Shown one piece after another: positions 1-32,270 of a stretch of 32,273 bases of DNA. The stretch covers positions 1 to 32,273 of the forward strand of contig JAKBMM010000036.1 in NCBI GenBank assembly GCA_021831565.1, given 5' to 3'. Made by a program: the position numbers and the translations under genes. The notes under the pieces are model-generated. The model was given only the letters and a program-made list of their open reading frames with translations, made no database searches and was not told the DNA's origin. Numbering within the stretch: position 1 is the first letter of the stretch; the number at the start of each line of letters is the position of its first letter. The stretch is from Planctomycetota bacterium (lineage in GTDB: Bacteria > Planctomycetota > Phycisphaerae > WQYP01).

Positions 1-1097
1 CGCAGGTTCTGGAGGCGGAGAACCACCTGCCAATCGCGCGTCAAGCCGGCAACGCCGGCCAGGATATTCTCGAACATCAGCGGATACAGATTGCCGCCGC
101 CGGCCACAACGATTTCATCCCGGCGTCCGCGCAGGCGGCTCATTCGCGCTCCTTTACGTCCGCAGGCGCAGCGTCCGGGGATCAGGCGCGTCACGTCGCG
201 CGAACGATAACGGATCAGCGGCATGACGCGCCTCCTTAGGGTGGTGTAAACCAGTTCCCCGTAACCGTCCGGAGTTACGTCCGCCGCCTCATGGTAAAAG
301 TCGATGTCATCCAGATGATAACCGTCGAAATCACAGGGTTGATAACCCAGACCGCTGCCGAGTTCCACACTGCCGTAGCACATGCGCACGATGGCGCCCC
401 GCCACACCTTATGCATCCAGCCGATGGCCTCGCGGGGCATTTCTTCGGCGCCGCCGACGAGAGTTTTCAACGCAACAGAGCCGTCGCGCTCGGCCAACTC
501 GGTGAGCCGGATCAACCAGGTTGGTTCCCCCATCACAACATTGAAGCGATAGGTCCGCAGCCGCCGGTATACTTCCACCGGATCGACCTTTCCGAAGGCC
601 ATGCAGAAATTACCCGCCGCCATCAAGGCGTTATGCGTCAACATTCCGGGAATCCACATCGAAAAGTCGAAGGCGTTGGCGACGCGATCCTCCGGGCCGA
701 TGCCCATCATGGGTAGTCCGGCGGCCATCACCTGGCCCATCTGCTCCATCTCGCGTTGATCGTAATAAATCCGCTTGTTGCGTCCGCTGGTTCCGGAAGA
801 TTCAAAGACAATCGCGGGGGGGCGGCATAAAAAAGATTCCGGATCAGCAATGATGTCCTCCGGAGTGGTAAAAAAATCGCCGAGGTCCCCCGGCGTTTTC
901 ACCTGCCGTGGATCAATGCCCAGCCGCCGAAACGCAGCGCGATAAAACGGCGAATGCTGCGCTACCCAGCGAAGCGTCCGCCGAAAACGCGCGGTTCGAA
1001 CCTGGTCAATCAGCCGGTCCGGAAGGCGCTCGTAAAAGTTCGCCAGCAGAACCGGCGGTATTCGGTCAGCCAGGGAATCAAGCGACGCCAGTATCAT
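1..1097 (-). CDS. PaaK/F390-type adenylate-forming ligase, partial
   Basis: The reading frame opens at ATG 1097 and stays open to the left edge, so the C-terminus lies outside the window; 365 codons are visible. The protein resembles phenylacetate-CoA ligase and coenzyme F390 synthetase enzymes, which activate a carboxylic acid with ATP. Visible motifs are the P-loop-like SSGTSG (about residue 98), YGSVELGSG as the A5-type motif, the YRSRDVTRLIPGRCACG segment carrying the A8 Arg/Asp, and RGRRDEIVVAGGGNLYP at the hinge to the C-terminal lid. It is the last visible gene of a minus-strand run, 61 bp after the aminotransferase. The substrate is unknown; PaaK-like proteins in biosynthetic clusters often load unusual acids. 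The start is the only in-frame ATG near the upstream gene and has a modest GGGAG about 12 nt before it. Confidence 0.85.
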   Translation of the reverse strand, partial: MILASLDSLADRIPPVLLANFYERLPDRLIDQVRTARFRRTLRWVAQHSPFYRAAFRRLGIDPRQVKTPGDLGDFFTTPEDIIADPESFLCRPPAIVFESSGTSGRNKRIYYDQREMEQMGQVMAAGLPMMGIGPEDRVANAFDFSMWIPGMLTHNALMAAGNFCMAFGKVDPVEVYRRLRTYRFNVVMGEPTWLIRLTELAERDGSVALKTLVGGAEEMPREAIGWMHKVWRGAIVRMCYGSVELGSGLGYQPCDFDGYHLDDIDFYHEAADVTPDGYGELVYTTLRRRVMPLIRYRSRDVTRLIPGRCACGRKGARMSRLRGRRDEIVVAGGGNLYPLMFENILAGVAGLTRDWQVVLRLQNL

Positions 1098-1158
1098 TGT
1101 TCCAAGATGCTCCCGTGTTTAGAGCCTGCCCGGATAGGCCCTTGCGCCCCAACAAGAT

Positions 1159-2520
1159 TCATCGGACGGCGCGCATGGCCTTTTCAATCGCCGCCGTGGC
1201 AATAGCCAGATCGTCGGCGCTGTGTACCGTGCTGATGAACCAGCACGCGGACCCGGAACCGTTCAGATGCACGCCCTGGCGTAGCAGGGCATGGCGGAAC
1301 GCGCCGTAGCGGGCCATATCCACGCCGCTCAGATCGCGATAATGACGCAACGGCTTGCCGTCGCGGTTGAATACCACCTGAAACATGCCGCCACTCCCCT
1401 GCACAACGCACGGAACGTTCCAATCCCGACTGCTTCTCCGGATGGCCTCCATACACGCCCGGCCATGTTCATGAATGGATTCCAGAACACCGGGACGGGC
1501 GATCTGGCGGAGAGTGAACAGGGCGGCCGCGGCGCAGAGCGGGTTGCCGTTGTAGGTTCCGCCGTGTTTGACAGTATTGGCGCCGATCAATTCCATGATG
1601 TCGCGCCGGCCCGCAAAAGCACTGATCGCGAACCCGCCGCCGAGCGCCTTGCTGAAAACCGCCAGATCGGGCGTAACTCCGAATGCCTCCGCCGCCCCGC
1701 CTCGCGCCAGACGGAAGCCGGTGACGATTTCATCAAATATGAGGATGATTCCCAACCGCGCGCATTGCTCCCGCAACCACGGGAGAAATCCGGGTTGCGG
1801 TTCAATGCAGGCGTTGTTGGCGACAACGGGTTCCAGAATCACGGCGGCCAGGTCGGAGGCATGGCTTTCGATAATACGGCTTGTCCGATCGCGGTCATTG
1901 AAGGGGGCGATGATCACGTCGCCGACTACGCCGGCGGGTATGCCGGGCGAATGGGGATAACTTGCCGGGGCGTCCAGCGGACCGGCTTGCGCCGCGGTGG
2001 GCCGGTTGCTTACCGCCAGCACATCCACCCAACCGTGATAATGTCCCTCGAACTTGAGCACGCGATTCTTGCCGGTAAAGCCGCGGGCGGCCCGAATGGC
2101 TCCGCAGATGGCTTCCGAACCGGAGTTGGAAAAGCGGACCAGCTCGGCGCCGGGAACCATGCGGCATATCTGTTCGGCCAGTTCCACTTCCACGATATTG
2201 CACGTGCCGAACATCGTACCATCCGCAAGCTGCTTGTCCGCGGCGCGAATCAGGCCGGGGTGGGCATGGCCCAGGATCACACTGCCATAACTAAGCAGAT
2301 AATCGACGAATTCGTGCCCGTCGGCGTCCCAAATATGTGAGCCGCGACCATGCGTGAGATACAGTGGATAGTGCCAGGAACCGGTGGTGGTGGTGCGGGC
2401 GGAACTGCTGATTCCACCGGCGAGAACTTGCCGGGCACGGGCGAACCACCGCTGCGATTGCTCGGCCGCCGAAGCGTCCGCCAATCCAAGAGGGGCCGTT
2501 TGGGTTGGTACGTCGCCCAT
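1159..2520 (-). CDS. GSA-aminomutase-like class III aminotransferase
   Basis: This 453-residue protein is a PLP-dependent class III aminotransferase of the glutamate-1-semialdehyde 2,1-aminomutase branch. Visible motifs are SNSGSEA (cofactor phosphate binding), EGHYHGW, the IFDEIVTGFR segment with the Asp that contacts the PLP ring nitrogen, and FSKALGGG with the Schiff-base lysine. The N-terminus lacks the PGGVNSPVR-type stretch expected of true HemL and has AGGISSSART instead. It is also about 25 residues longer than usual. I therefore favour a pathway-specific aminotransferase or aminomutase over the tetrapyrrole enzyme. Its ATG overlaps the stop of the upstream M20 gene as ATGA, which points to translational coupling. 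An AAGGAAAA stretch lies at Shine-Dalgarno distance. The PaaK-like ligase follows downstream. Confidence 0.88.
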   Translation of the reverse strand: MGDVPTQTAPLGLADASAAEQSQRWFARARQVLAGGISSSARTTTTGSWHYPLYLTHGRGSHIWDADGHEFVDYLLSYGSVILGHAHPGLIRAADKQLADGTMFGTCNIVEVELAEQICRMVPGAELVRFSNSGSEAICGAIRAARGFTGKNRVLKFEGHYHGWVDVLAVSNRPTAAQAGPLDAPASYPHSPGIPAGVVGDVIIAPFNDRDRTSRIIESHASDLAAVILEPVVANNACIEPQPGFLPWLREQCARLGIILIFDEIVTGFRLARGGAAEAFGVTPDLAVFSKALGGGFAISAFAGRRDIMELIGANTVKHGGTYNGNPLCAAAALFTLRQIARPGVLESIHEHGRACMEAIRRSSRDWNVPCVVQGSGGMFQVVFNRDGKPLRHYRDLSGVDMARYGAFRHALLRQGVHLNGSGSACWFISTVHSADDLAIATAAIEKAMRAVR

Positions 2521-3836
2521 CAGGAGTTTTCCTTATCATGCGTCCAGTAATACGCCAGCAACGCCAAATGTACCGCCGTATCCCGAACGGCGGCCAGATC
2601 CACGAATTCGTCAACGGCGTGCGCCTGCTCCAGGCTGCCCGGTCCCCACACCAGCGTGGGAACGCCCTGGCGCCGCCAGCGCAGTCCCGCTTCACATCCG
2701 GAATTAAATGCTTTCCAGCCCTTCCATGCAAGCTTTCGTTCGTTTATTTGCAAAATTCGTTCGGCCAGCCGGCACAGGGGGTGCTCCGGCGCCGTGGCGT
2801 GTCCGGAGTATTCTTCAATAAAATCCGTCTTCATATCGCCGGCGGCGAAGGCCTTACCCATGCGTTGCTCAAGCTCCCGCTGAAATCTGCGTTTCCAGAC
2901 GGAAATATCCTCATCGGGCGGAAGTTCGAAATACCCCGTGCACAAGGCCTGATCGCAGACCATGCCCGGCCAGGAACCGCCTTGGATTTGATCCACTGTA
3001 ATTGGCCGTAGAATAGGATAATCAGCGAAGAGCTGGTTTGATTTTTTCCGGTTGAATTTCCGTTCCATTCGCTCCAGGGCCGCAAGAACACGCCGCAGAT
3101 CCGCAATGGCGTCGCGCCCCAGCCACTTAAGTGTTCCATGTACGGCTCGGCCGGCGACGGTAATGCGAAATCGCAGGCCACTTCGTGATGCGCAGCGTGG
3201 TTGGCCCTCCGTCGGTTCGAGAATCACCACGGCATCGGCACGATAACCCCGCATCAGACTGGTAAGCGTGCCCAGCCCGACACAATCTTCTTCGCCCGGA
3301 ACCAATTCCAGCAGGATATCGCCGCGCGGCGCGTCGGCACCGGCGGCAATTTCACGCAGCGCCTGCATCGCCAGCAGGGCACTGACCAGCGGGCCTTTGC
3401 TATCGCAGGCGCCGCGACCATAAAGGCGGCCCCTGGCCATGAAACCAGACCAGGGGCCGTGCCGCCAGCGTTCCGGTTCCGGCGCGGCAACCACGTCGCT
3501 ATGGGCATTGAACAGCAGACTGCGGCCCCGTTCCCGGCCAGGATGGCGGATGACCAGGGTGGGCCGACCTTTTAAGGGGAGATGGCCGGCGGCGGCTTCG
3601 GGAAAACCAGCCAGCGATTTCTCATCCGTTTCGAACACGTCAACGGAAAAACCGCATGCTCGCGCCCATTGGGCCAACCGTCGCACCACGGCCTTTTCCC
3701 GCCCGCTGATGCTGGGAATCCGGACAATTTCCGCCAGCAGACTTTCCGCTTGCGGCTGGAGCCGTTGCACGGCCCGAATGAGTTTTTTCCTCAAATTCGC
3801 CGGGGTAGGGACAGCGAGTTTCGATATTATTGGCAT
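2520..3836 (-). CDS. M20-family metallopeptidase/deacylase (ArgE/DapE type)
   Basis: A member of the zinc-dependent M20 family (ArgE, DapE, carboxypeptidase G2 type), which hydrolyses amide bonds of N-acyl amino acids or dipeptides in the cytoplasm. The metal and catalytic segments are all present: FNAHSDVV (His ligand and catalytic Asp), GRGACDSKG (bridging Asp), PGEEDCVG (general-base Glu and Glu ligand), and AHAVDEFVD near the C-terminus (last His ligand). A lid/dimerisation domain with AVHGTLKWLG lies between. The frame can extend to a TTG at 3848, but ATG 3836 has a GGAAA stretch at the right distance, so I chose it (438 residues). The gene overlaps the aminotransferase by ATGA. Its specificity cannot be read from sequence; as neighbour of an acid-activating ligase it could remove an acyl or aminoacyl group in the same pathway. 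Confidence 0.88.
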   Translation of the reverse strand: MPIISKLAVPTPANLRKKLIRAVQRLQPQAESLLAEIVRIPSISGREKAVVRRLAQWARACGFSVDVFETDEKSLAGFPEAAAGHLPLKGRPTLVIRHPGRERGRSLLFNAHSDVVAAPEPERWRHGPWSGFMARGRLYGRGACDSKGPLVSALLAMQALREIAAGADAPRGDILLELVPGEEDCVGLGTLTSLMRGYRADAVVILEPTEGQPRCASRSGLRFRITVAGRAVHGTLKWLGRDAIADLRRVLAALERMERKFNRKKSNQLFADYPILRPITVDQIQGGSWPGMVCDQALCTGYFELPPDEDISVWKRRFQRELEQRMGKAFAAGDMKTDFIEEYSGHATAPEHPLCRLAERILQINERKLAWKGWKAFNSGCEAGLRWRRQGVPTLVWGPGSLEQAHAVDEFVDLAAVRDTAVHLALLAYYWTHDKENS

Positions 3837-3974
3837 GAGAGTTTCCAAGGCTTCGCACGGGCAACCGCATGGCTGAAGTCTTTCTAAATGGCTTCGCCGG
3901 CGAGAGAATCGACGTAAAAATCCGGGCCCCCTGCGCGGCGGGATATTCTTTTGTTCATCGCGGTGCGCCGGGAT

Positions 3975-4020
3975 GGGAGTTTATCACCGGCAATCCGGCG
4001 GCGATGTGATAAACTGTCCC
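3975..4020. other. inverted repeat between HAD and M20 genes
   Basis: GGGAGTTTATCAC (3975-3987) faces GTGATAAACTGTCCC (4006-4020) across an 18-base loop; the GTTTATCAC arms match perfectly. On the plus strand the right arm is followed by GCTTTTTATC, which would look like a terminator, but no plus-strand gene ends here. On the minus strand it sits in the 249-bp spacer between the HAD and M20 genes and lacks a U-run, so it could be an attenuator, a processing hairpin or an operator. No coding region in the spacer is convincing. Confidence 0.35.
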
Positions 4021-4085
4021 GCTTTTTATCTTGTCCAGCTCTCCGCGCCAAGACTTCCGCGTCGGCCGGCCACACCATCGTGCGG

Positions 4086-4778
4086 TTAAATCACCGCCGC
4101 CCTGGTCGACCACGCCTGCCGGAGGGCCGAGGCGACATCCCGCAGTGAAACAAAAGGAATATAGGCGATGTGTTCGACCGCCAGCGCCCGGGCCAATACG
4201 CCCTTGGCGAACACCCGGTCAGCTTTACGGGCCGGGCATAAATCGCTCCGGCCATCGCCAATATAAATCGTCTGTCTTCCCGGCCGTCTTAATTGTTCGG
4301 CGCTGGCGCATTTGCAATGGGCGGCGCCCGACTGGCAATGTGTTTGCGAATGCGGACATATCAGCCGCAACCGTTCGCCGCATTGCACGATCCGATTGGC
4401 GTAAACTTCCAGACGGGCAATCCCCCGGCGGGCCAGAATTCTCTTAATGAATCGCTCGATGCCGTCGCTGAGAATCGTCACCGGAACACGATGTTGGGCC
4501 AGATATTCCAATAAAAGCTCCAAGCCGGGATCCACCTCAATTCGATCCAGGAACGCCTCAAGTTCCCGGGCGGAAATTCGCACCAACGAAAATTCCTGCC
4601 GCAGACATTCCCGCGAACCGATCAGACCCGCCTGCCAGCGTTCTTCAATGAGCCTCCAGGATTCATTAACGGCATATCGGTTGATAAGCTCATCGAGCAC
4701 GTCCACACGGGAAATAGTCCCGTCAAAGTCGAGCCATACCTGGGCCAAATCGGGAGGCGGTAGCGGAAAGTTCGTCAA
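4086..4778 (-). CDS. HAD-superfamily phosphatase (MtnX/SerB-like)
   Basis: A small cytoplasmic phosphatase of the haloacid dehalogenase superfamily. It shows motif I WLDFDGT (nucleophile Asp and second Asp near the N-terminus), motif II TILSDG, and motif IV YIGDGRSDLCPARKADRVFAKG, the pattern of phosphoserine-phosphatase and MtnX-like members. A Cys/His-rich stretch, CPHSQTHCQSGAAHCKC, sits between the cap and motif IV and resembles the metal-binding-looking insert of some MtnX-like proteins. The frame extends to GTG 4787, but there the AAGG is directly against the start. TTG 4778 has AAGGG eight bases upstream, so I prefer it (230 residues). It is first in the minus-strand run and separated by about 250 bp from the M20 gene, so membership in the same operon is plausible but not proven. 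The substrate is unknown. Confidence 0.8.
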   Translation of the reverse strand: MTNFPLPPPDLAQVWLDFDGTISRVDVLDELINRYAVNESWRLIEERWQAGLIGSRECLRQEFSLVRISARELEAFLDRIEVDPGLELLLEYLAQHRVPVTILSDGIERFIKRILARRGIARLEVYANRIVQCGERLRLICPHSQTHCQSGAAHCKCASAEQLRRPGRQTIYIGDGRSDLCPARKADRVFAKGVLARALAVEHIAYIPFVSLRDVASALRQAWSTRAAVI

Positions 4779-4916
4779 TTGGGTCACCCTTGTTTACTAC
4801 CTTACTTTTTATTGCTTACCCAAATCATAATAAAGATGTAATGATTTTTGAAGTGCTTTCTCCATGCTGCTTGCTCCATTTTCAATAAGAATTCCCAAAG
4901 ATTTGCGTAAGCGTTA

Positions 4917-6711
4917 TCACTTCCTTGTTGTGAAGCGTAAGACCACTGGGGCCAAGGGCACGCCGCCGCTGCTTTGGAAGCTTTTGTAGGACGGACTGTT
5001 GATGCCCAAGCGATAAGTGTGGCCCGGTTCCAGCTTCACCGGCAGCACACAGGTCTTGTGATCTTCGGTCCAGTAGGGCTTCTTCCCTTTGGGAATCGTC
5101 GGGAAATCAGGCCCCCCGCCCGTCCAGGAAAACCCCGCGCCCATCGGAACACTGAACGTAACGCTGATTTCCGTCAAATTCGGGTTCACGTCCTTCGCAC
5201 CGTTTTTAGGAATAAGCCTCATGATCTTTGGCTTGGCGGCCAGCCGTTGCAATTGTCTACCCGCACCTCGAGTAGTGAAATAAATAGCCGTTGGTCTTGC
5301 CGATAAACCGCCTGCGCTTCGAAAATTCCTGTAGCTCTTGGAATTGATGCCCACGCGGTAATAGTGGGCGGCTTGGAGCTTGACGGGCAAAACACAGGTG
5401 CGTTTGTTGAGCCAATGCGCGCGTTGCCCCGCGGGACTTGGAGGATAATCCGCCCCGCCGCCGGTCCACGAAAATCCCTTCCCCATGTCCCGGTCGAATG
5501 TGACAGTGATCTGAGTAATCGCCGGATTCACATCCGTTTCCCCCACACGCGGTGATGTGGCGATGATGTTCGGCCGGCCTTCCGCGGTAGCAGGACTGTT
5601 TTCAATTGCGCTTCTGGGATTGGCGGCGGTCGGCCCGGCGCCCGCCCCGGATTGCGCGCCGGTGAAACCAACCAGTGCAAGGCCAATGAACAGCGCTACC
5701 GCCGCCACTGGCCAACCATTTGTTTTCTCGAATTTTTTGATCATACGAATCCTCGCTTTCATTTGATTTCTGTTTTCCAGTATTCCGACCATGTCCGGCG
5801 ACCTGGCCGGGCAACTGAAATGTTCGAGCACTTTGATGACCGTGCGCCCGTAGAACTGCCTTTCCCGGTCCCCGCTGTACGACAAAGCCAGCGCATCGCA
5901 TGCCAGCTCCCTGTCGGCCTGCATTCGGCGGAAGGCATACCATACCAGAGGATTGAACCAGTGCAGGATCAACAGCAGCGTCGTGAGCCAGTTCAGTGGA
6001 ATGTCGCCGCGCTTGACGTGGCCCAGTTCGTGTAAAAACACATGACGCAACTCCGGCAGCGAAAAACTCTCTGTCAACCCGGCCGGCAGGAGCAGGCGGG
6101 GCCGGATGAATCCGTACAATGCCGGGCTGGCTGCGGCATCGGTCTCAATCAGGGCCAGCGGCGCATAGACCCCCATCTCTTGCTTGCAGTCCTCAAGCAA
6201 ATCCAGCACTTCCGCAACCGTCAGAGGACGTTTGCGCCGAGTTCTCCATCGCCTCCGGCAACCCGTTGTCAAAAGCCCAACCAGCAGCGCCGCGGCGCCG
6301 GCCAGCCAGACCCCGACCAGCCAGTTCCGCCAGGATTCGAGCCAGGAAAATGCGGTCGCAGTGGTCCGAACCGCCAATGAAACGAGGGCGTCGCCGCTGG
6401 CCGGTGGGGCGGAATGTTTCAACGAACCTGGATGCCCTGGCATGGCCATCGCCGGGCTTGGTGAAACGCTGGAAAAAACGGGCGGATGGTGCTGGAATAA
6501 ATTCAAGACACCGATTTGGACCGGGTAACGACCACGGCAACGCCAGCCGGAGCACCACCAGCAACCAAAGCGTATGGCGCCATTTCGGCGGGAGCTGCTT
6601 GCGAAACAGCCGTTGCGCCAGCAACACCAGCACAATTAACGCGGCGGCCTCCGACGAAAGACGCAGCAGGCAGAAAAAGAAAGCGTTGGTTGAGTCGAGC
6701 AGCGTGTTCAT
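4917..6711 (-). CDS. BlaR1-like M56 metallopeptidase with two Ig-like repeats (frameshifted)
   Basis: A membrane zinc protease of the BlaR1/MecR1 M56 family. The N-terminus (from ATG 6711) has the family's first membrane helices and PPKWRHTLWLLVVLRLALPW. The frame then breaks at TTA-CCC-GG, about 6521-6526. Skipping one base continues as QIGVLNLFQ and reads to 4917, giving about 597 residues in total. The downstream part contains further membrane helices, the zinc motif HELGH, the distal DRELACD, and a helix WPVAAVALFIGLALVGF. Instead of a penicillin-binding sensor the C-terminus has two tandem Ig-like repeats of about 105 residues, each with the pattern DVNP..T.ITVTF..M..GFSWTGGG..P and TCVLPVKL...Y..GINS. 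The start overlaps the BlaI stop as ATGA. The break may be a real mutation, a sequencing error or +1 frameshifting; as written, no single frame encodes the whole protein. Confidence 0.82.
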
Positions 6712-7088
6712 TGTTCCTCCTTTTCTTCAAGCAACCGCTTCAATTCACGGATTTCCGCGGTTGAAAGATTTTTGCTTTCCACGAAGTGCGCCAGCATGGG
6801 CCGCAGCGCGCCGTTAAAGACCCGATCCAAAAACGTTTCGCTCGCCTCCGCTACACATTCCGCTTGCTTCACCAACGGGCGATAGAGATAGGCCCGCCCT
6901 TCTTTGCGGAAGCCCAGGGCCTTCTTGGCGACCAGCCGGCCCAAAAACGTCTTGATCGTCTTGGGATGCCAGGTGGGATCGGCGCGGGTCAGGGTGGCGA
7001 TGACATCACGAGCTGAACAGGGACCCTTGGCCCAGACGACTTTGATGACCTCCCACTCGGCCTCGGAGATTTTAGGAATCTTTTTCAT
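6708..7088 (-). CDS. blaI: BlaI/MecI-family repressor
   Basis: A winged-helix repressor of the BlaI/MecI/CopY family. The N-terminal region PKISEAEWEVIKVVWAKGPCSARDVI is the family's DNA-binding domain start. TWHPKTIKTFLGRLVAKKAL is the recognition helix region, and the C-terminal helices (AEIRELKRLLEEKEE) would mediate dimerisation and carry the cleavage region. The 126-128 residue length is typical. ATG 7094 is also in frame, but ATG 7088 has GGGATGG just upstream and matches usual family starts. It is co-transcribed with the M56 protease through an ATGA overlap, the standard repressor/sensor-protease layout. Two BlaI-like boxes in its own promoter (7104-7115 and 7127-7138) indicate autorepression. 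Given the altered sensor domain, the signal may not be a beta-lactam. Confidence 0.9.
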   Translation of the reverse strand: MKKIPKISEAEWEVIKVVWAKGPCSARDVIATLTRADPTWHPKTIKTFLGRLVAKKALGFRKEGRAYLYRPLVKQAECVAEASETFLDRVFNGALRPMLAHFVESKNLSTAEIRELKRLLEEKEEQ

Positions 7089-7103
7089 CACCATCCCATG
7101 CGA

Positions 7104-7115
7104 TTACAACTGTAA
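7104..7115 (-). promoter_or_regulatory. BlaI-type operator 1
   Basis: TTACAACTGTAA is a perfect 12-bp palindrome matching the TACA-N2-TGTA core known for BlaI/MecI operators. It lies between the predicted -10 (7124-7129) and the blaI start, over the expected transcription start, so bound repressor would block initiation. Confidence 0.75.
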
Positions 7116-7123
7116 ACGCCCAT

Positions 7124-7152
7124 AGATTACATTCGTAGGCGATCTCTGTCAA
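7124..7152 (-). promoter_or_regulatory. blaI-M56 promoter
   Basis: Read on the minus strand, TTGACA (7152-7147), a 17-bp spacer and TAATCT (7129-7124) form a near-consensus vegetative promoter. The predicted start falls about 7117, giving a roughly 25-30 nt leader before blaI. Two BlaI-type boxes overlap the -10/spacer and the start site. Confidence 0.7.
7127..7138 (-). promoter_or_regulatory. BlaI-type operator 2
   Basis: TTACATTCGTAG is an imperfect version of the TACA-N2-TGTA box, with one half-site changed to CGTA. It is centred 23 bp from operator 1 and overlaps the -10 hexamer and spacer of the blaI promoter. Paired boxes about two helical turns apart are typical for BlaI-family control. 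Confidence 0.6.
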
Positions 7153-7226
7153 CCAACAAAAATGTTCCGGGTTTTTTACCTGTCCGCCGGTGAGAGTTTC
7201 TATCCAACAGGTCGCGCCGGATATCA

Positions 7227-7255
7227 TTGACTTAAATAGCAATGTGCGGTAGGAT
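7227..7255 (+). promoter_or_regulatory. promoter of RelE/XRE pair, predicted leaderless
   Basis: TTGACT (7227-7232), a 17-bp spacer and TAGGAT (7250-7255) lie only six bases before the toxin ATG at 7262. Transcription would start at or next to the ATG, so the mRNA would have no leader. No Shine-Dalgarno site is present. Confidence 0.6.
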
Positions 7256-7261
7256 ACGATA

Positions 7262-7516
7262 ATGGCCCACGTGGAAATATCGCCCGCCGCCGACGCTGAT
7301 ATAGCGGGATTGCCGCTGGTTATTCGTGGACGAGTATGGGACATCGTTGATCGCCTGGAGCGATGGCCCGTAGTAAGTGGAGCCAAGCCATTACGCGGCA
7401 AGCTGGCTGGGCATTACCGGATACGCACGGGCGATTATCGCGTGCAATTTCGCGTGGCTGGCGGCATGGTGATTATTGAGAAAGTCGGCCACCGCGACGG
7501 ATTCTATGAGGATTAA
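7262..7516 (+). CDS. RelE/ParE-family toxin
   Basis: An 84-residue protein with the RelE/ParE layout: an N-terminal VEISPAADADI segment, a helix with basic residues (PLVIRGRVWDIVDRLERWP), then the strand region PLRGKLAGHYRIRTGDYRVQFRVAGGMVIIEKVGHRDGFYE. The GHYRIRTGDYRV segment and the closing GHRD are hallmarks of RelE-type mRNA endoribonucleases that act at the ribosome. The antitoxin-like XRE gene follows after 3 bp, so this is a toxin-first operon. The start is fixed by the -10 element six bases upstream. The family is clear; whether it acts as RelE or ParE is not. Confidence 0.85.
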   Translation: MAHVEISPAADADIAGLPLVIRGRVWDIVDRLERWPVVSGAKPLRGKLAGHYRIRTGDYRVQFRVAGGMVIIEKVGHRDGFYED

Positions 7517-7519
7517 GCC

Positions 7520-7936
7520 ATGAACATGCATGTGCAGACAATCGAAGTAGCCGGACAACGCCTGACCTTGCTTCCCGAAACCGAGTATCTCAAACTGCTG
7601 GTGCGGGCGGGATCACCGACGCCGGAACTGCACATGCCGCCCATGCCCGCCAAGCTGCCAAGCGGCAACTATCCGGCACGGGAATACTTGCGGGCGTCCA
7701 TCGCACGGGAGATTATCCGCACGCGTCGCCGGTTGGGACTCTCACAAGCCGAATTGGCCCGGCGGGCCGGACTGGCGATAGCGCACTTGAACCGCCTGGA
7801 ACGGGCCAAGGGCAATCCCACCGCCGCCACGGTGGCGAAGATTGACGCCGCGTTGAAGGCCGCCGAGAAAGAGGCATTGTCTGGAAAGAAAAGAGGGGCA
7901 TCAACGTGCGGTGATTTACGGCGGGTCAGGCGGTGA
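7520..7936 (+). CDS. XRE-family antitoxin
   Basis: A 138-residue protein whose residues about 65-120 form a Cro/C1-type helix-turn-helix: REIIRTRRRLGLSQAELARRAGLAIAHLNRLERAKGNPTAATVAKIDAAL. The N-terminal 60 residues (TIEVAGQRLTLLPETEYLKLL) probably form the toxin-binding part. It follows the RelE-like toxin by 3 bp and is expected to bind the toxin and repress the operon. The last residues after KKRG are Arg-rich and out of character. A fragment in another frame begins at the same place, so the natural C-terminus may have been replaced at a recombination joint. Confidence 0.85.
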   Translation: MNMHVQTIEVAGQRLTLLPETEYLKLLVRAGSPTPELHMPPMPAKLPSGNYPAREYLRASIAREIIRTRRRLGLSQAELARRAGLAIAHLNRLERAKGNPTAATVAKIDAALKAAEKEALSGKKRGASTCGDLRRVRR

Positions 7937-8081
7937 AAGCAAGGAAAATAAGAGTGTTTTTTGTCCGCTCTACAAGGACAAGAAAACCGGAGAGCCGCGC
8001 CGTAGTGGCAAATGCTGTTTGAGCTTCAATGACCACAAAGGCATTCGCCGGGCGGTTGTCGCGCCCTACTTGGATTCATAA
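7911..8081 (+). pseudogene. integrase N-terminal remnant (putative)
   Basis: A 56-codon open stretch, from GTG 7911 to TAA 8081, overlaps the antitoxin end in another frame. It encodes VFCPLYKDKKTGEPRRSGK followed by FNDHKGIRRAVVAP. The pattern of an opening strand, a K-T-G turn, then basic and aromatic strands matches the N-terminus of tyrosine-type integrases I know from planctomycetes. No catalytic domain follows. It is best read as a leftover of the integrase of a mobile element, near a duplicated tRNA-Pro end. The identification rests on pattern only. Confidence 0.35.
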
Positions 8082-8257
8082 ACGATCCTCCCCTGCCGGG
8101 CGGTCTCCCTGTAAATCAGCCCCGGCACATCTTTGAGCCTCTCCCACCTCGATTGCGGGACAACCAGGATATCCATGGGCATGACCGGCTGCATCCAGAC
8201 GTTGAAATCCAAACCGAAGAATTTTCTCAAATCGATCACACGGAATCTCTGTGACAC
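8066..8257 (-). pseudogene. nucleotidyltransferase C-terminal remnant
   Basis: The minus-strand frame encodes MDILVVPQSRWERLKDVPGL then IYRETARQGRIVYESK and a stop. This is the typical ending of MNT/KNT-type nucleotidyltransferases: a final strand, a helix with basic residues, then the Arg-Glu-Gly-like turn and VLYE end. The catalytic GSxxxG...DxD half is missing upstream, where no frame supplies it. The fragment converges with the integrase remnant and overlaps it by 16 bp. It was probably the antitoxin or enzyme half of a MntA/HepT-like module, now decayed. Confidence 0.45.
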
Positions 8258-8532
8258 TGCATCGGACCGTTGGGTAATATTTCACTTCGGCTTGTGCGAT
8301 TCATGGTTGTTCTCCGTGATCCCCTGCTCTAAATTCACCTGCTCTATTTTGGCCTTTAGCCAAAATCGGGGCGACAGGACACCAATAGAACTTTTTGCGG
8401 ATGGGTGTTGGGAGATTGCCGGATTGCGGATCTATACGACCGTGAAGTCTGGTCGGCGGGGGCTGTTTGTTAGGCCTCAGGGCATCAACCGCCGTGACGT
8501 TGGCAGTGCGGCTGTGTCGTGCTTTATAACCC
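8258..8532. other. intergenic region with no intact gene
   Basis: Apart from the duplicated tRNA-Pro end at 8341-8379 and two CTGCTCTA octamers just before it (8333-8347 area), I see no intact gene here. Frames on both strands are short or lack start signals. Confidence 0.5.
8341..8379. repeat. direct repeat copy A: tRNA-Pro 3' end plus hairpin
   Basis: This 39-bp segment matches 9831-9869 at 36 positions. It contains the last 15 bases of the tRNA-Pro gene with discriminator (minus strand) and the hairpin that follows the tRNA. The hairpin here is TTTTGGC-CTTTA-GCCAAAA. Two of the three differences from the other copy exchange a G:C pair for T:A within the stem, so pairing is kept. Such a partial tRNA copy is what integration into a tRNA 3' end leaves. 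Confidence 0.7.
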
Positions 8533-8560
8533 TTGACGCATATCACCCATAGGTTATAAT
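8533..8560 (+). promoter_or_regulatory. promoter of HigB-like/XRE pair, predicted leaderless
   Basis: TTGACG (8533-8538), a 16-bp spacer and TATAAT (8555-8560) end six bases before the ATG at 8567. No ribosome-binding site is present. The layout predicts transcription starting at the start codon. Confidence 0.7.
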
Positions 8561-8566
8561 ATCACA

Positions 8567-8926
8567 ATGTGGCAGGTTGAGTTCACGGATGATTTTGGGC
8601 GATGGTGGTGCGATCTTTCATCCGCTCAGCAGACCGCCATCGATGCGAATGTGCGGCTGCTGGAACAACTGGGGCCGCACCTTTCCCGTCCGTACGCGGA
8701 TACGGTGAAGGGTTCACGGCACTCGAATATGAAGGAGTTGCGAATCCAATGTCAGGGGCGGCCCTTGAGAGTATTCTTTGCTTTCGACCCCCGCCGTTGT
8801 GCGATCCTGCTCATAGGCGGCGACAAAACCGGGGATAGCCGGTTCTACGAGCGTATGATTCCAGTGGCCGAACGGTTGTACGACGAATACCTTGATCAAT
8901 TGAGGAAAGAAGGTTTGATCTCATGA
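8567..8926 (+). CDS. RelE/HigB-like toxin (phage Gp49-type)
   Basis: A 119-residue toxin of the RelE/HigB superfamily, in the longer Gp49-like branch. Visible features are the N-terminal WQVEFTDDFGRWW, the helix LSSAQQTAIDANVRLLEQLGP, the conserved SRPYADTVKGSRHSNMKELR segment, and the strand pair GRPLRVFFAFDPRRCAILLIGGDKTGD, with the usual RFYERMIPVAERLYDEYL tail. These proteins cleave mRNA at the ribosome. The toxin comes first, and its stop overlaps the XRE antitoxin start as ATGA. The start is set by the -10 element six bases upstream. Confidence 0.88.
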   Translation: MWQVEFTDDFGRWWCDLSSAQQTAIDANVRLLEQLGPHLSRPYADTVKGSRHSNMKELRIQCQGRPLRVFFAFDPRRCAILLIGGDKTGDSRFYERMIPVAERLYDEYLDQLRKEGLIS

Positions 8927-9237
8927 AGCACCAATCTTTTCGGAAACTTCGGGCGAGGATGACCCCTCGCCAGCGTGTCCGGGCAGAGGCACGGGCCAAA
9001 GAAATGATGGCGGAAATGCTGCTGGCTGAAATTCGCCGGTCGGTCGGGCTTACCCAGCAGGATCTGGCCAGATCCCTCGGCGTGACCCAGCCAAGTCTGT
9101 CCAAGCTGGAGAAGCAGGACGACATGCATATCAGCACGCTCCGGCGGCTGGTCGAAGCGCTGGGTGGGCGGCTGGAAGTGGTCGCACACCTGCCCAAGGG
9201 CGATATTCGCATCAGTCAATTTGCACAGACTATATAG
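8923..9237 (+). CDS. XRE-family antitoxin (HigA-like)
   Basis: A 104-residue antitoxin with an N-terminal helical region rich in Arg (FRKLRARMTPRQRVRAEARAKEMMAEM) followed by an XRE helix-turn-helix: IRRSVGLTQQDLARSLGVTQPSLSKLEKQDDMHISTLRRLVEALGG. It ends in RLEVVAHLPKGDIRI, the usual closing strand of this group. It overlaps the toxin by four bases, so the two are translationally coupled. It is expected to neutralise the toxin and autorepress the promoter at 8533-8560. Confidence 0.9.
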   Translation: MKHQSFRKLRARMTPRQRVRAEARAKEMMAEMLLAEIRRSVGLTQQDLARSLGVTQPSLSKLEKQDDMHISTLRRLVEALGGRLEVVAHLPKGDIRISQFAQTI

Positions 9238-9251
9238 CACAAGGGGCAATT

Positions 9252-9364
9252 GCCTGTATGGCGGAACTGGCAGACGCGGCAGCTTCTTTATGTGCACCTA
9301 TGAAAGTGCATGCAAGCAAGCTACTACCCTCGTGGGTGTGTGGGTCCGAATCCCACTATGGGCA
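9252..9364 (+). tRNA. leucine-type tRNA-like sequence with anticodon-loop insertion
   Basis: Acceptor arms GCCTGTA (9252-9258) and TATGGGC (9357-9363) pair, with two G-T wobbles, followed by discriminator A. The D-arm GCG-GAACTGGCAGA-CGC (9261-9277) and a long variable arm ACCC-TCGT-GGGT (9326-9337) are of leucine type. The T-arm is GTGGG-TCCGAAT-CCCAC (9340-9356), with C where a U (pseudouridine 55) is expected. The anticodon stem GCAGC/GCTAC (one mismatch) encloses 36 bases instead of 7. The extra 29 bases contain the hairpin TGCAC-CTATGAAA-GTGCA. No leucine anticodon can be assigned. It could be a pseudo-tRNA, a tRNA with a tiny intron, or a structural variant. No CCA is encoded. Confidence 0.55.
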
Positions 9365-9399
9365 GTTGTATTTCTTGAAGGTGAAGCGATACGGATTTA

Positions 9400-9699
9400 C
9401 TATATTGTCCGGAATCTGCCATTCTCCAAGGTTATTAATTTACGGCGGGAGGCAATTTCCATCAGCGCTACACACTCCTGTACTGAGCCTCTGGCGATCA
9501 TGAAAAAGTTTTTGCGGTCAGGAATTGTAAATCGCCCATTGCCTTCGGCGATATTGGCGGCAATTGACAAGGCCGCACGATTTACCTGATCTACCAGAAA
9601 GTAGTAGCCACGAGGAAAGGCCTCGGCTGTCGCCGCGACTTGGTCCGCAAAATCCACGGCCTTTTGGTAGACCTGCAGATTCTCAAACATGAACGGCAT
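9400..9699 (-). CDS. four-helix-bundle protein (23S rRNA IVS-type)
   Basis: A 99-residue protein of the four-helix-bundle family first seen inside 23S rRNA intervening sequences. It shows FENLQVYQKAVDFADQV, FLVDQVNRAALSIAANIAEGNGR, RKNFFMIARGSVQECVALMEIA, which are the conserved segments of helices 1 to 4. Members also occur as accessory proteins of diversity-generating retroelements, but no reverse transcriptase is present here. The molecular role is unknown. ATG 9699 is preceded by GGAAGGG at the right distance. An array of octamer repeats lies directly upstream. The gene is convergent with the leucine-type tRNA-like sequence. Confidence 0.85.
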   Translation of the reverse strand: MPFMFENLQVYQKAVDFADQVAATAEAFPRGYYFLVDQVNRAALSIAANIAEGNGRFTIPDRKNFFMIARGSVQECVALMEIASRRKLITLENGRFRTI

Positions 9700-9714
9700 A
9701 GTTGCCCTTCCGAA

Positions 9715-9836
9715 AGAACAGTAGATCAGTGGAACAGTAGACCGCAGTGGAGTAGGACATAATGTACATTTGCAGGTGATCGTCGATTGTAAAGCCCTTC
9801 TCTACTGCTCGACTGTTCAACTGCTCCACTGCTCTA
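9715..9836. repeat. inverted octamer arrays around a 45-bp core
   Basis: At 9717-9754 the plus strand carries octamers of the form GAACAGTA, GATCAGTG, GAACAGTA, then CAGTGGAG. At about 9799-9836 the complementary octamers (CTACTGCT, CGACTGTT, CAACTGCT, CCACTGCT) run in the opposite orientation. The two arrays can pair into a long imperfect hairpin upstream of the four-helix-bundle gene. The second array ends in the duplicated hairpin and tRNA-Pro end. Two similar octamers precede repeat copy A at 8341. Confidence 0.6.
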
Positions 9837-9869
9837 TTTTTGCCTTTGGCAAAAATCGGGGCGACAGGA
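9831..9869. repeat. direct repeat copy B: native tRNA-Pro end plus hairpin
   Basis: This is the partner of 8341-8379, 36 of 39 bases identical. Here the tRNA part is intact. The hairpin TTTTTGCC-TTT-GGCAAAAA (9837-9855) directly abuts the tRNA discriminator base and may end the tRNA transcript, though no separate U-run follows it. Confidence 0.7.
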
Positions 9870-30987: not shown

Positions 30988-32270
30988 CAAAATAACTTGA
31001 TTCTTTCGCCATGTCATAGCCGATAATAAAAGCATGACACAAGAACGGACGCTTGATGGCAAGTATGAAGTCTTGCAAGCCGCCCTGAACGAACGCACGC
31101 GACGGCTGTGGGCGGGCACGGAGGCGGTCGCCTATGGCCGCGGGGGTATCGCCGCGGTGATGCGTGTCACCGGTATGTCGCGCAACACCATCGTGCGTGG
31201 CATCGCCGAAGCTGCCGCGGCCCATCCGCTGGACGTAGCCCGCATTCGTGCGCCGGGCGGTGGGCGCAAAGCCAAGGCGATGTTGGACCCGGGGCTGAAG
31301 CAGGCCTTGGAGCGCCGGGTGGAGCCGGTCAGTCGGGGCGACCCGGAATCGCCGCTGCGGTGGACGTGCAAGAGCACACGCCGGCTGGCCAGGGACTTGG
31401 CGGCCGAAGGCTACCAAGTCAGTCATCGGCTGGTGGCCGACTTGCTGCACGAGTTGGGCTACCGTTTGCAGGCCAATCGCAAGACCCGCGAAGGATCCAG
31501 CCATCCCGACCGCAACGCCCAGTTCGAGTACATCAACCGCGTCGTATCTCAAGCGATGGCGGGCGGCCAGCCGGCGGTCTCGGTGGATACCAAGAAGAAA
31601 GAACTGGTCGGAGACTTCAAAAATGGCGGCCGGGAATGGCGGCCGAAGGGTGCGCCGGAGGAGGTCCGGGTCCACGACTTTTTGGATAAACAGTTGGGCA
31701 AGGCGATCCCCTACGGGGTTTACGACCTGGCGCGCAACGCCGGCTGGGTCAGCGTGGGTGTGGACCACGACACGGCCACCTTCGCGGTTAACACCATTCG
31801 CCGCTGGTGGCGGACGATGGGCCGACCGGGCTATCCGCGGGCGCGTTCGCTGCTGATCGTGGCCGATAGCGGCGGGAGCAATGGTTCGCGCGTGCGGCTG
31901 TGGAAGTGGGAACTGCACCAGCTGGCGTGTCAGACGGGCTTGGCGATCCACGTGTGTCATCTGCCGCCGGGAACCAGCAAGTGGAACAAGATCGAACACC
32001 GGCTGTTCAGCTTCATCAGCCAGAACTGGCGTGGTCGGCCGCTGCTGACCCATGCCACGATCGTCAACCTGATCGCCCACACACGGACCACGTCCGGCTT
32101 GAAGGTCCGGTGCGAACTGGATGCCAAGCGGTACCCGCGCAAGGTCAAGGTGACCAACGCTCAGATGGAACAAATCCACCTGCGTCCCGACGCCTTTCAT
32201 GGCGAGTGGAACTATCTCATTCGACCAGGATGATCCCGCCTTAATCATCATATTATTTCGTTACAATCCC
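30978..32270 (+). mobile_element. ISAzo13-family insertion sequence, complete
   Basis: A 1293-bp element with one transposase gene. The left end GGGACTGTAACAAAATAA (30978-30995) is the inverted copy, with two differences, of the right end (32253-32270, reading GGGATTGTAACGAAATAA on the minus strand). TAA flanks the element on both sides (30975-30977 and 32271-32273), as a 3-bp target duplication would. The insertion is at the 3' end of the nuclease gene. The window stops right after the second TAA, so the right neighbour is unseen. Confidence 0.88.
31034..32233 (+). CDS. ISAzo13-family transposase
   Basis: A 399-residue DDE transposase of the ISAzo13 family. The N-terminal part has helix-turn-helix regions (AVMRVTGMSRNTIVRGIAEA and GYQVSHRLVADLLHELGY). 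The catalytic triad is readable as Asp in AVSVDTKKKELVGDFKN, Asp in LLIVADSGGSNGSR, and Glu in GTSKWNKIEHRLFSFISQNW. RTTSGLKVRCELD and KVTNAQMEQI complete the family pattern. The gene is intact, so the element may be active. GATAAT ends six bases before ATG 31034, and TTGATT lies 19 bp further up, so translation may be leaderless. Confidence 0.95.
   Translation: MTQERTLDGKYEVLQAALNERTRRLWAGTEAVAYGRGGIAAVMRVTGMSRNTIVRGIAEAAAAHPLDVARIRAPGGGRKAKAMLDPGLKQALERRVEPVSRGDPESPLRWTCKSTRRLARDLAAEGYQVSHRLVADLLHELGYRLQANRKTREGSSHPDRNAQFEYINRVVSQAMAGGQPAVSVDTKKKELVGDFKNGGREWRPKGAPEEVRVHDFLDKQLGKAIPYGVYDLARNAGWVSVGVDHDTATFAVNTIRRWWRTMGRPGYPRARSLLIVADSGGSNGSRVRLWKWELHQLACQTGLAIHVCHLPPGTSKWNKIEHRLFSFISQNWRGRPLLTHATIVNLIAHTRTTSGLKVRCELDAKRYPRKVKVTNAQMEQIHLRPDAFHGEWNYLIRPG

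What the first reader, a model, noticed from the sequence alone, without database searches (positions are those of the whole stretch)
9252..9364. Leucine-type tRNA-like sequence with 29 extra bases in the anticodon loop
Acceptor, D, variable and T arms all form, with leucine-type D-loop and long variable arm. The anticodon loop is 36 bases, and the insert has its own 5-bp hairpin. No leucine anticodon is readable, and position 55 is C. It could be a decoy tRNA, a tRNA with a minimal intron, or an altered tRNA carried by a mobile element. I do not know a described bacterial class that fits.
Basis: seen in the sequence. Interest (0 to 1): 0.65.

Follow-up and report, generated by a model that had tools for sequence, protein, structure and literature searches.

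The report
Non-decoding leucine tRNA-like gene
This is a leucine-type transfer-RNA gene whose decoding loop is filled by 29 extra bases, so it can hardly read the genetic code; it sits in a strain-specific stretch of DNA, is probably decaying, and resembles a very rare, scattered and apparently undescribed set of long-armed leucine tRNA-like genes found in other bacteria.

Summary
Window 9252-9364 is a full-length leucine-type tRNA-like gene: Rfam tRNA 29.6 bits, just over the cut-off of 29; leucine model 80.8 bits; 23 of 24 shell pairs. Its anticodon loop is 36 nt. Excising any one segment to leave a 7-nt loop gives no leucine anticodon, so the intron reading fails. The inner hairpin is no more stable than chance (88/500 shuffles), position 55 is C, and the anticodon stem has a C·A mismatch. 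The gene lies 14 bp behind a HigBA-like toxin-antitoxin pair, in a ~5-kb segment absent from the sister genome at this locus. It is unique among 397 genomes of its class. Leu-GAG was not found in this genome, but that may be an assembly gap. A scan of public genomes showed that the shape recurs: seven sporadic 110-114-nt leucine tRNA-like genes from distant lineages have anticodon arms extended into an 18-20-bp rod (z -2.4 to -5.6). Four of their genomes keep all five normal Leu tRNAs, so those genes are extras. Viral contigs hold many more Leu tRNA-likes with replaced interiors. Best reading: a laterally acquired, non-decoding Leu tRNA-like gene, probably decaying. Membership in the long-armed set is compatible, not shown.

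The parts
9252..9364 (+). Leu-type tRNA-like gene, 113 nt, discriminator A73 at 9364, no encoded CCA (normal for the Leu genes of this genome)
   Evidence: RF00005 29.6 bits at exactly these coordinates; Leu model 80.8 bits
9252..9258 (+). acceptor stem 5' strand GCCTGTA, pairs with 9357-9363 TATGGGC; T9255-G9360 and G9256-T9359 are wobble pairs
   Evidence: direct reading; pair table
9261..9277 (+). D arm of leucine type, GCGGAACTGGCAGACGC, identical to that of this genome's Leu-CAA and Leu-TAG genes
9279..9283 (+). anticodon stem 5' strand GCAGC (partner 9320-9324 GCTAC; C9280-A9323 mismatch)
9284..9319 (+). 36-nt anticodon loop, 29 nt longer than normal; no leucine anticodon obtainable by one excision
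   Evidence: enumeration from the sequence
9291..9312 (+). inner hairpin TGTGCAC (9291-9297) / GTGCATG (9306-9312), 8-nt loop
   Evidence: folds; stability not above chance (88/500 shuffles)
9326..9337 (+). long variable arm ACCC-TCGT-GGGT, 4 pairs
9340..9356 (+). T arm GTGGG-TCCGAAT-CCCAC; position 55 is C (9346)
8567..8926 (+). HigB-like toxin gene (Gp49/DUF891); a promoter-like TTGACG-16-TATAAT lies just upstream (8533-8560)
   Evidence: Pfam PF05973 1.1e-19; promoter scan
8923..9237 (+). HigA-like HTH antitoxin gene; stop codon 14 bp before the tRNA-like gene
   Evidence: Pfam HTH_37/HTH_3
4869..9850 (.). segment without counterpart in the sister genome at this place; 1-4868 and 9851 onwards are syntenic there at about 88-95% identity

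Best explanation
The gene is an accessory, laterally acquired leucine-type tRNA-like gene that does not decode. Its shell (acceptor, D, variable and T arms, A73) is that of a tRNA-Leu, and bacterial LeuRS does not need the anticodon, so such RNAs can be charged or bound without being used by the ribosome. The anticodon arm has become a long imperfect hairpin. The RNA would be made as part of the higBA transcript and trimmed by RNase P (inferred). This copy carries C55, which breaks the G18:U55 contact needed for leucylation in E. coli, plus a stem mismatch and two wobble pairs in the acceptor stem, so it is most likely decaying from a more intact long-armed ancestor. Shown: the anatomy, no leucine anticodon by simple excision, the strain-specific position, and the existence of similar extra genes elsewhere. 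Inferred: lateral origin, transcription, decay, and common architecture with the other long-armed genes.
For: Shell. No counterpart in the sister genome's syntenic locus; unique in 397 genomes of the class. Only 69% identical to any canonical Leu gene of the family, so not a recent local duplicate. Similar 110-114-nt long-armed Leu genes in a Chloroflexi MAG, a Phycisphaerales MAG, an Acidobacteriaceae MAG, Methylorubrum, an Amylibacter MAG, a Methylopila MAG and a Polyangiaceae MAG, with significantly structured arms. Four of those genomes hold all five normal Leu tRNAs. LeuRS independence of the anticodon, charging of truncated tRNA-Leu and the importance of G18:U55 are reviewed in PMC9976931.
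Against: The window arm is not more structured than shuffles, unlike the seven others. No intact close homologue was found, so the ancestral state and the direction of change are inferred. Decay is inferred from four positions that would also fit ordinary drift. No expression data.
Confidence: 0.5

Rival explanations
1. Ordinary pseudogene: a canonical tRNA-Leu (perhaps of CUN type, since the stem keeps AGCTT...GCT) suffered a random 29-nt insertion or local rearrangement in the anticodon loop and is decaying; the hairpin means nothing.
For: Arm stability at chance level; C55, C-A mismatch, U-G and G-U acceptor pairs; Rfam score at the threshold; no relative with this insert.
Against: 23 of 24 shell pairs and A73 intact, more than expected after long decay; total length (113) and loop length (36) fall inside the narrow range of seven independent long-armed genes (110-114; 31-37); no repeat or target-site duplication at the insert.
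Confidence: 0.3
2. Functional long-armed Leu tRNA-like RNA: charged or bound by LeuRS, kept as a decoy against tRNA-cleaving nucleases or as a leucine donor outside the ribosome.
For: The architecture recurs in distant lineages as an extra gene; neighbouring genes include PIN-domain proteins (L305, L306), a PglX-like methylase (L283) and an unannotated ORF with an RNALSH (Rx4H) motif (L319); the window copy follows higBA; encoded CCA after the three alphaproteobacterial copies.
Against: C55 in the window copy; weak arm; neighbours are not homologous to each other and no common partner was found; presence in well under 1% of genomes tested.
Confidence: 0.15
3. Working tRNA-Leu(GAG) with a minimal intron: normal Leu-GAG was not found in this genome and the gene would supply it after splicing.
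For: Leu-GAG is the one isoacceptor not found in G000, whereas most relatives sampled have it; Leu-CAA genes with 21-26-nt inserts exist in other bacteria (L311, L316, L341).
Against: One excision leaving a 7-nt loop gives only AGC, CGC, CTC or CTT; the G000 contig C84, orthologous to the Leu-GAG neighbourhood of G001, leaves homology about 225 bases before its end, short of the tRNA site, so the normal gene may lie in an assembly gap.
Confidence: 0.03
4. Assembly or binning artefact.
For: The genome is a fragmented draft of 86 contigs.
Against: The gene is internal to a 32-kb contig with syntenic DNA of the same genus on both sides.
Confidence: 0.02

Closest known systems
tRNAOther pseudo-tRNA of Bacillus cereus ATCC 14579 (PMC3399842, abstract read)
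   Same: a tRNA-like gene at a genomic island that does not function in translation
   Different: per the abstract it has a deletion phenotype; the window gene is of leucine type with a 36-nt anticodon loop and has no known phenotype
Group I intron of tRNA-Leu(UAA) in cyanobacteria and plastids (PMC4476775)
   Same: sequence inserted in the anticodon loop of a tRNA-Leu gene
   Different: only 29 nt here, no Rfam intron hit, no leucine anticodon after excision
Allo-tRNAs and their transposon-associated pseudogenes (review PMC7609411)
   Same: non-canonical tRNA genes, some hypothesised to be tied to mobile elements, some decayed
   Different: 8/4 or 9/3 acceptor branch; the window gene has a 7-bp acceptor stem, Leu D arm and an altered anticodon loop
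Phage tRNAs with altered anticodon loops that evade tRNA nucleases (van den Berg 2023, PMC10264068, title and abstract only)
   Same: altered anticodon loop as a possible means of escaping nucleases
   Different: by title and abstract these concern anticodon-loop mutations of phage tRNAs, not a 29-nt insertion

Membership tests
Functional elongator tRNA-Leu | closed cloverleaf with Leu D arm, long variable arm and A73 | tested here: met
   23 of 24 pairs, A73
Functional elongator tRNA-Leu | leucine anticodon in a 7-nt loop | tested here: not met
   36-nt loop, no leucine anticodon by any one excision
Functional elongator tRNA-Leu | T54-T55-C56 in the T loop | tested here: not met
   TCC; position 55 is T in all 22 distinct canonical family genes
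Group I intron-bearing tRNA-Leu | intron core and restoration of the anticodon after excision | tested here: not met
   29 nt, no intron family in Rfam at E<=1, no anticodon restored
Long-armed Leu tRNA-like set found here (L283, L305, L306, L307, L319, L331, L349) | Leu shell, total 110-114 nt, loop 31-37 nt | tested here: met
   113 nt, 36-nt loop
Long-armed Leu tRNA-like set found here (L283, L305, L306, L307, L319, L331, L349) | arm more stable than shuffles (z -2.4 to -5.6 in the seven) | tested here: not met
   z -0.85, 88/500
Long-armed Leu tRNA-like set found here (L283, L305, L306, L307, L319, L331, L349) | extra gene beside all five normal Leu isoacceptors | tested here: inconclusive
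   met in G400, G404, G405, G406; Leu-GAG not found in G000, possibly an assembly gap
Viral Leu tRNA-like RNAs (L157-L236) | Leu shell with the anticodon region replaced by other helices | tested here: inconclusive
   shared shell; most viral interiors fold differently; no BLAST hit of the window gene in phages
Anti-nuclease decoy tRNA | expressed RNA that binds or occupies a tRNA nuclease | not testable with these tools
   needs RNA-seq and biochemistry

The most novel reading that the evidence does not exclude
The window gene is a somewhat worn member of an undescribed, sparse, horizontally spread class of leucine-type tRNA-like RNAs whose anticodon arm is replaced by an 18-20-bp rod. Such RNAs could still be recognised by LeuRS but cannot decode, and would serve as decoys or leucine donors at accessory or conflict loci. 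They would be related in principle to the numerous viral Leu tRNA-likes with replaced interiors.
Probability: 0.2. Interest if true: 0.8.

Novelty: new variant of a known kind. Interest (0 to 1): 0.42.

Why it matters
On its own the window gene is close to a curiosity. It led to two sets that ARAGORN and Rfam mostly miss: rare bacterial Leu tRNA genes with a rod-like, non-decoding anticodon arm that exist beside a full Leu set, and many viral Leu tRNA-likes with replaced interiors. Because LeuRS ignores the anticodon, leucine tRNA is a natural scaffold for RNAs that look like tRNA but do not decode. If these are expressed and charged, they offer a directly testable case of tRNA mimicry in phage-host conflict or in leucine transfer outside the ribosome.

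Tried and rejected
BLASTN of the gene against 61 relatives: only the D-arm matches normal Leu tRNAs. BLASTN against phages and plasmids: nothing. Direct or inverted repeats at the insert as a sign of a transposon or MITE: none. The possibility that the gene is this genome's Leu-GAG: no excision yields GAG, and the orthologous contig breaks off near the site. Gene neighbourhoods of the seven long-armed genes against Pfam, PADLOC, PHROGs and NCBIfam and against each other: suggestive single neighbours (PIN, methylase, Rx4H motif) but no shared partner. Searches of the order or family of three long-armed carriers: no second copy in 150, 199 and 400 genomes, so covariation within a clade could not be tested. 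Model R2 scores the window at 56 bits but scores a normal Leu gene at 55, so it does not discriminate long arms. Literature searches found no description of long-armed Leu tRNA-likes; only open-licence papers are searched.

Full report
What is there. ARAGORN and a default window-wide Rfam scan miss the gene. A search of the whole genome with RF00005 and a local scan both find it at exactly 9252-9364 with 29.6 bits against a cut-off of 29. Aligned with the four normal Leu genes of the same genome (CAA, TAA, TAG, CAG), it keeps the 7-bp acceptor stem, the leucine D arm (identical to those of Leu-CAA and Leu-TAG), the 4-bp variable arm, the 5-bp T stem and A73; 23 of 24 pairs form. It departs in a 36-nt anticodon loop, a C-A pair in the anticodon stem, C at position 55, A7-U66, and U-G and G-U pairs in the acceptor stem. 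It is at most 69% identical to any of 22 distinct canonical Leu genes of its family. A Leu D-arm ... T-arm pattern at this spacing never occurs in 100 shuffles of the window.

Can it decode? Keeping a prefix and a suffix of the 36-nt loop that together make 7 nt gives anticodons AGC, CGC, CTC or CTT, none for leucine. The genome's missing isoacceptor is GAG. Nearly all relatives whose genes were read have a normal Leu-GAG (two of the regions fetched as candidates turned out to hold a Leu-TAA gene and a truncated one). In the sister genome G001 it lies beside cysC and a PHP-domain gene. The orthologous contig of the window's genome (C84) matches at 92% and leaves homology about 225 bases before its end, short of the tRNA site, so a normal Leu-GAG may simply lie in an assembly gap. 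I therefore do not treat this gene as the genome's Leu-GAG.

Where it sits. Window 1-4868 and 9851 onwards are syntenic with G001 at about 88-95% identity, but roughly 4.87-9.85 kb has no counterpart there at this locus. The segment holds BlaR1/M56- and BlaI-like genes (by reading), a ParE-like toxin with an HTH gene, a HigBA-like pair ending 14 bp before the gene, and a 23S rRNA IVP-type gene. A good promoter-like site precedes higB, so co-transcription with higBA is plausible but inferred. No other genome among 397 of the class carries anything of this shape; two other pattern hits there are neighbouring tRNAs.

Related shapes elsewhere. I scanned public collections for a leucine D arm and T arm 57-87 nt apart, beyond the spacing of normal Leu genes. 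Among the parsed hits, seven have one long anticodon hairpin and a total of 110-114 nt: L283 Chloroflexi MAG, L305 Phycisphaerales MAG, L306 Acidobacteriaceae MAG, L307 Methylorubrum podarium, L319 Amylibacter MAG, L331 Methylopila MAG and L349 Polyangiaceae MAG. Their arms are more stable than shuffles that keep the stem (z -2.4 to -5.6, at most 9/500), all keep T55, and the three alphaproteobacterial copies have an encoded CCA. Four carriers also hold all five normal Leu isoacceptors (G400, G404, G405, G406), so the long-armed gene is an extra. None of 150, 199 and 400 relatives of three carriers has a second copy, so the set is sporadic. Neighbours include PIN-domain genes, a PglX-like methylase and an ORF with an Rx4H motif, but no shared partner.

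How the window copy compares. Its length (113) and loop (36) fit this set. Its arm does not stand out from shuffles (z -0.85, 88/500), and it has C55. In E. coli tRNA-Leu the anticodon is dispensable for leucylation and truncated tRNA-Leu is charged, whereas the G18:U55 contact is important (review PMC9976931). A Leu shell without an anticodon can thus be a LeuRS substrate in principle, but this copy is probably impaired. The departures (C55, C-A, U-G, G-U) are each explained by one transition from a canonical pair or base, as expected of decay. That reading is inference, since no intact close relative was found.

A second, larger set is viral. Of 80 viral stretches parsed, 66 are closed Leu shells whose interiors fold in various other ways. 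Roughly 28 share an AGTCAGG ... CCTGACT shell with different interiors. Rfam and ARAGORN mostly do not call them. One is identical to unannotated DNA between a DUF2303 gene and ninG in Bacteroides phage BS-TP2. One viral copy, L233, has a long anticodon arm and a normal variable arm. These are not shown to be homologous to the window gene.

Judgement. The tRNA shell, the lack of a leucine anticodon by simple excision and the strain-specific position are shown. Lateral origin, transcription with higBA and decay are inferred. I weigh a non-decoding accessory Leu tRNA-like in decay at 0.5, a plain interrupted pseudogene at 0.3, a functional decoy or leucine donor at 0.15 and an intron-bearing tRNA at 0.03. 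The wider set of long-armed and viral Leu tRNA-likes deserves its own study more than this copy does.

Noticed in passing
L157-L236 (viral contigs), e.g. L217, L224, L229: Many viral Leu-type tRNA-like genes keep the acceptor, D and T arms but have the anticodon region replaced by other helices; about 28 share the shell AGTCAGG...CCTGACT with different interiors; mostly unseen by ARAGORN and Rfam; one lies unannotated in Bacteroides phage BS-TP2 (PQ571275.1:19550-19657) before ninG.
   Followed up: partly
L183 and L197: Two nearly identical viral Leu tRNA-likes with a 13-nt anticodon loop and a long variable hairpin that differ by compensatory changes (GATATAAG/CTTATATT against GGGGTAAG/CTTATCTC).
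   Followed up: no
L311:138-247 -, L316:6074-6183 +, L341:1380-1484 +: Leu genes of CAA type with a 21-26-nt insert right after C34 (C^AA). Two related Planctomycetota MAGs share it with different hairpin loops, and no normal Leu-CAA was found in either: a possible minimal intron in bacterial tRNA.
   Followed up: partly
G000:C78:6869-6935 and G000:C14:24735-24791 (L060, L061): Two truncated tRNA-like stretches with intact anticodon and T arms but a defective 5' half, perhaps attachment-site remnants of integrated elements.
   Followed up: no
G000:C84:1-225 (L149): The contig leaves homology with the sister genome before the place of Leu-GAG and ends in unrelated sequence that may be a mobile element.
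   Followed up: partly
window 8307-8354: Short repeat present in about ten places of the sister genome G001.
   Followed up: no
window 31034-32233: ISAzo13-type transposase gene (Rhodopirellula transposase DDE domain) at the end of the contig.
   Followed up: no
L448:48-137 (Acidobacteriaceae MAG G401): ARAGORN calls a 90-nt tRNA with anticodon CTA, scored by the Leu model; a possible amber suppressor in a genome where no Leu-TAA was found among the hits.
   Followed up: no
L348 (Betaproteobacteria MAG): Leu-type shell with a normal 7-nt loop reading AGC (alanine anticodon) and an enlarged variable region.
   Followed up: no
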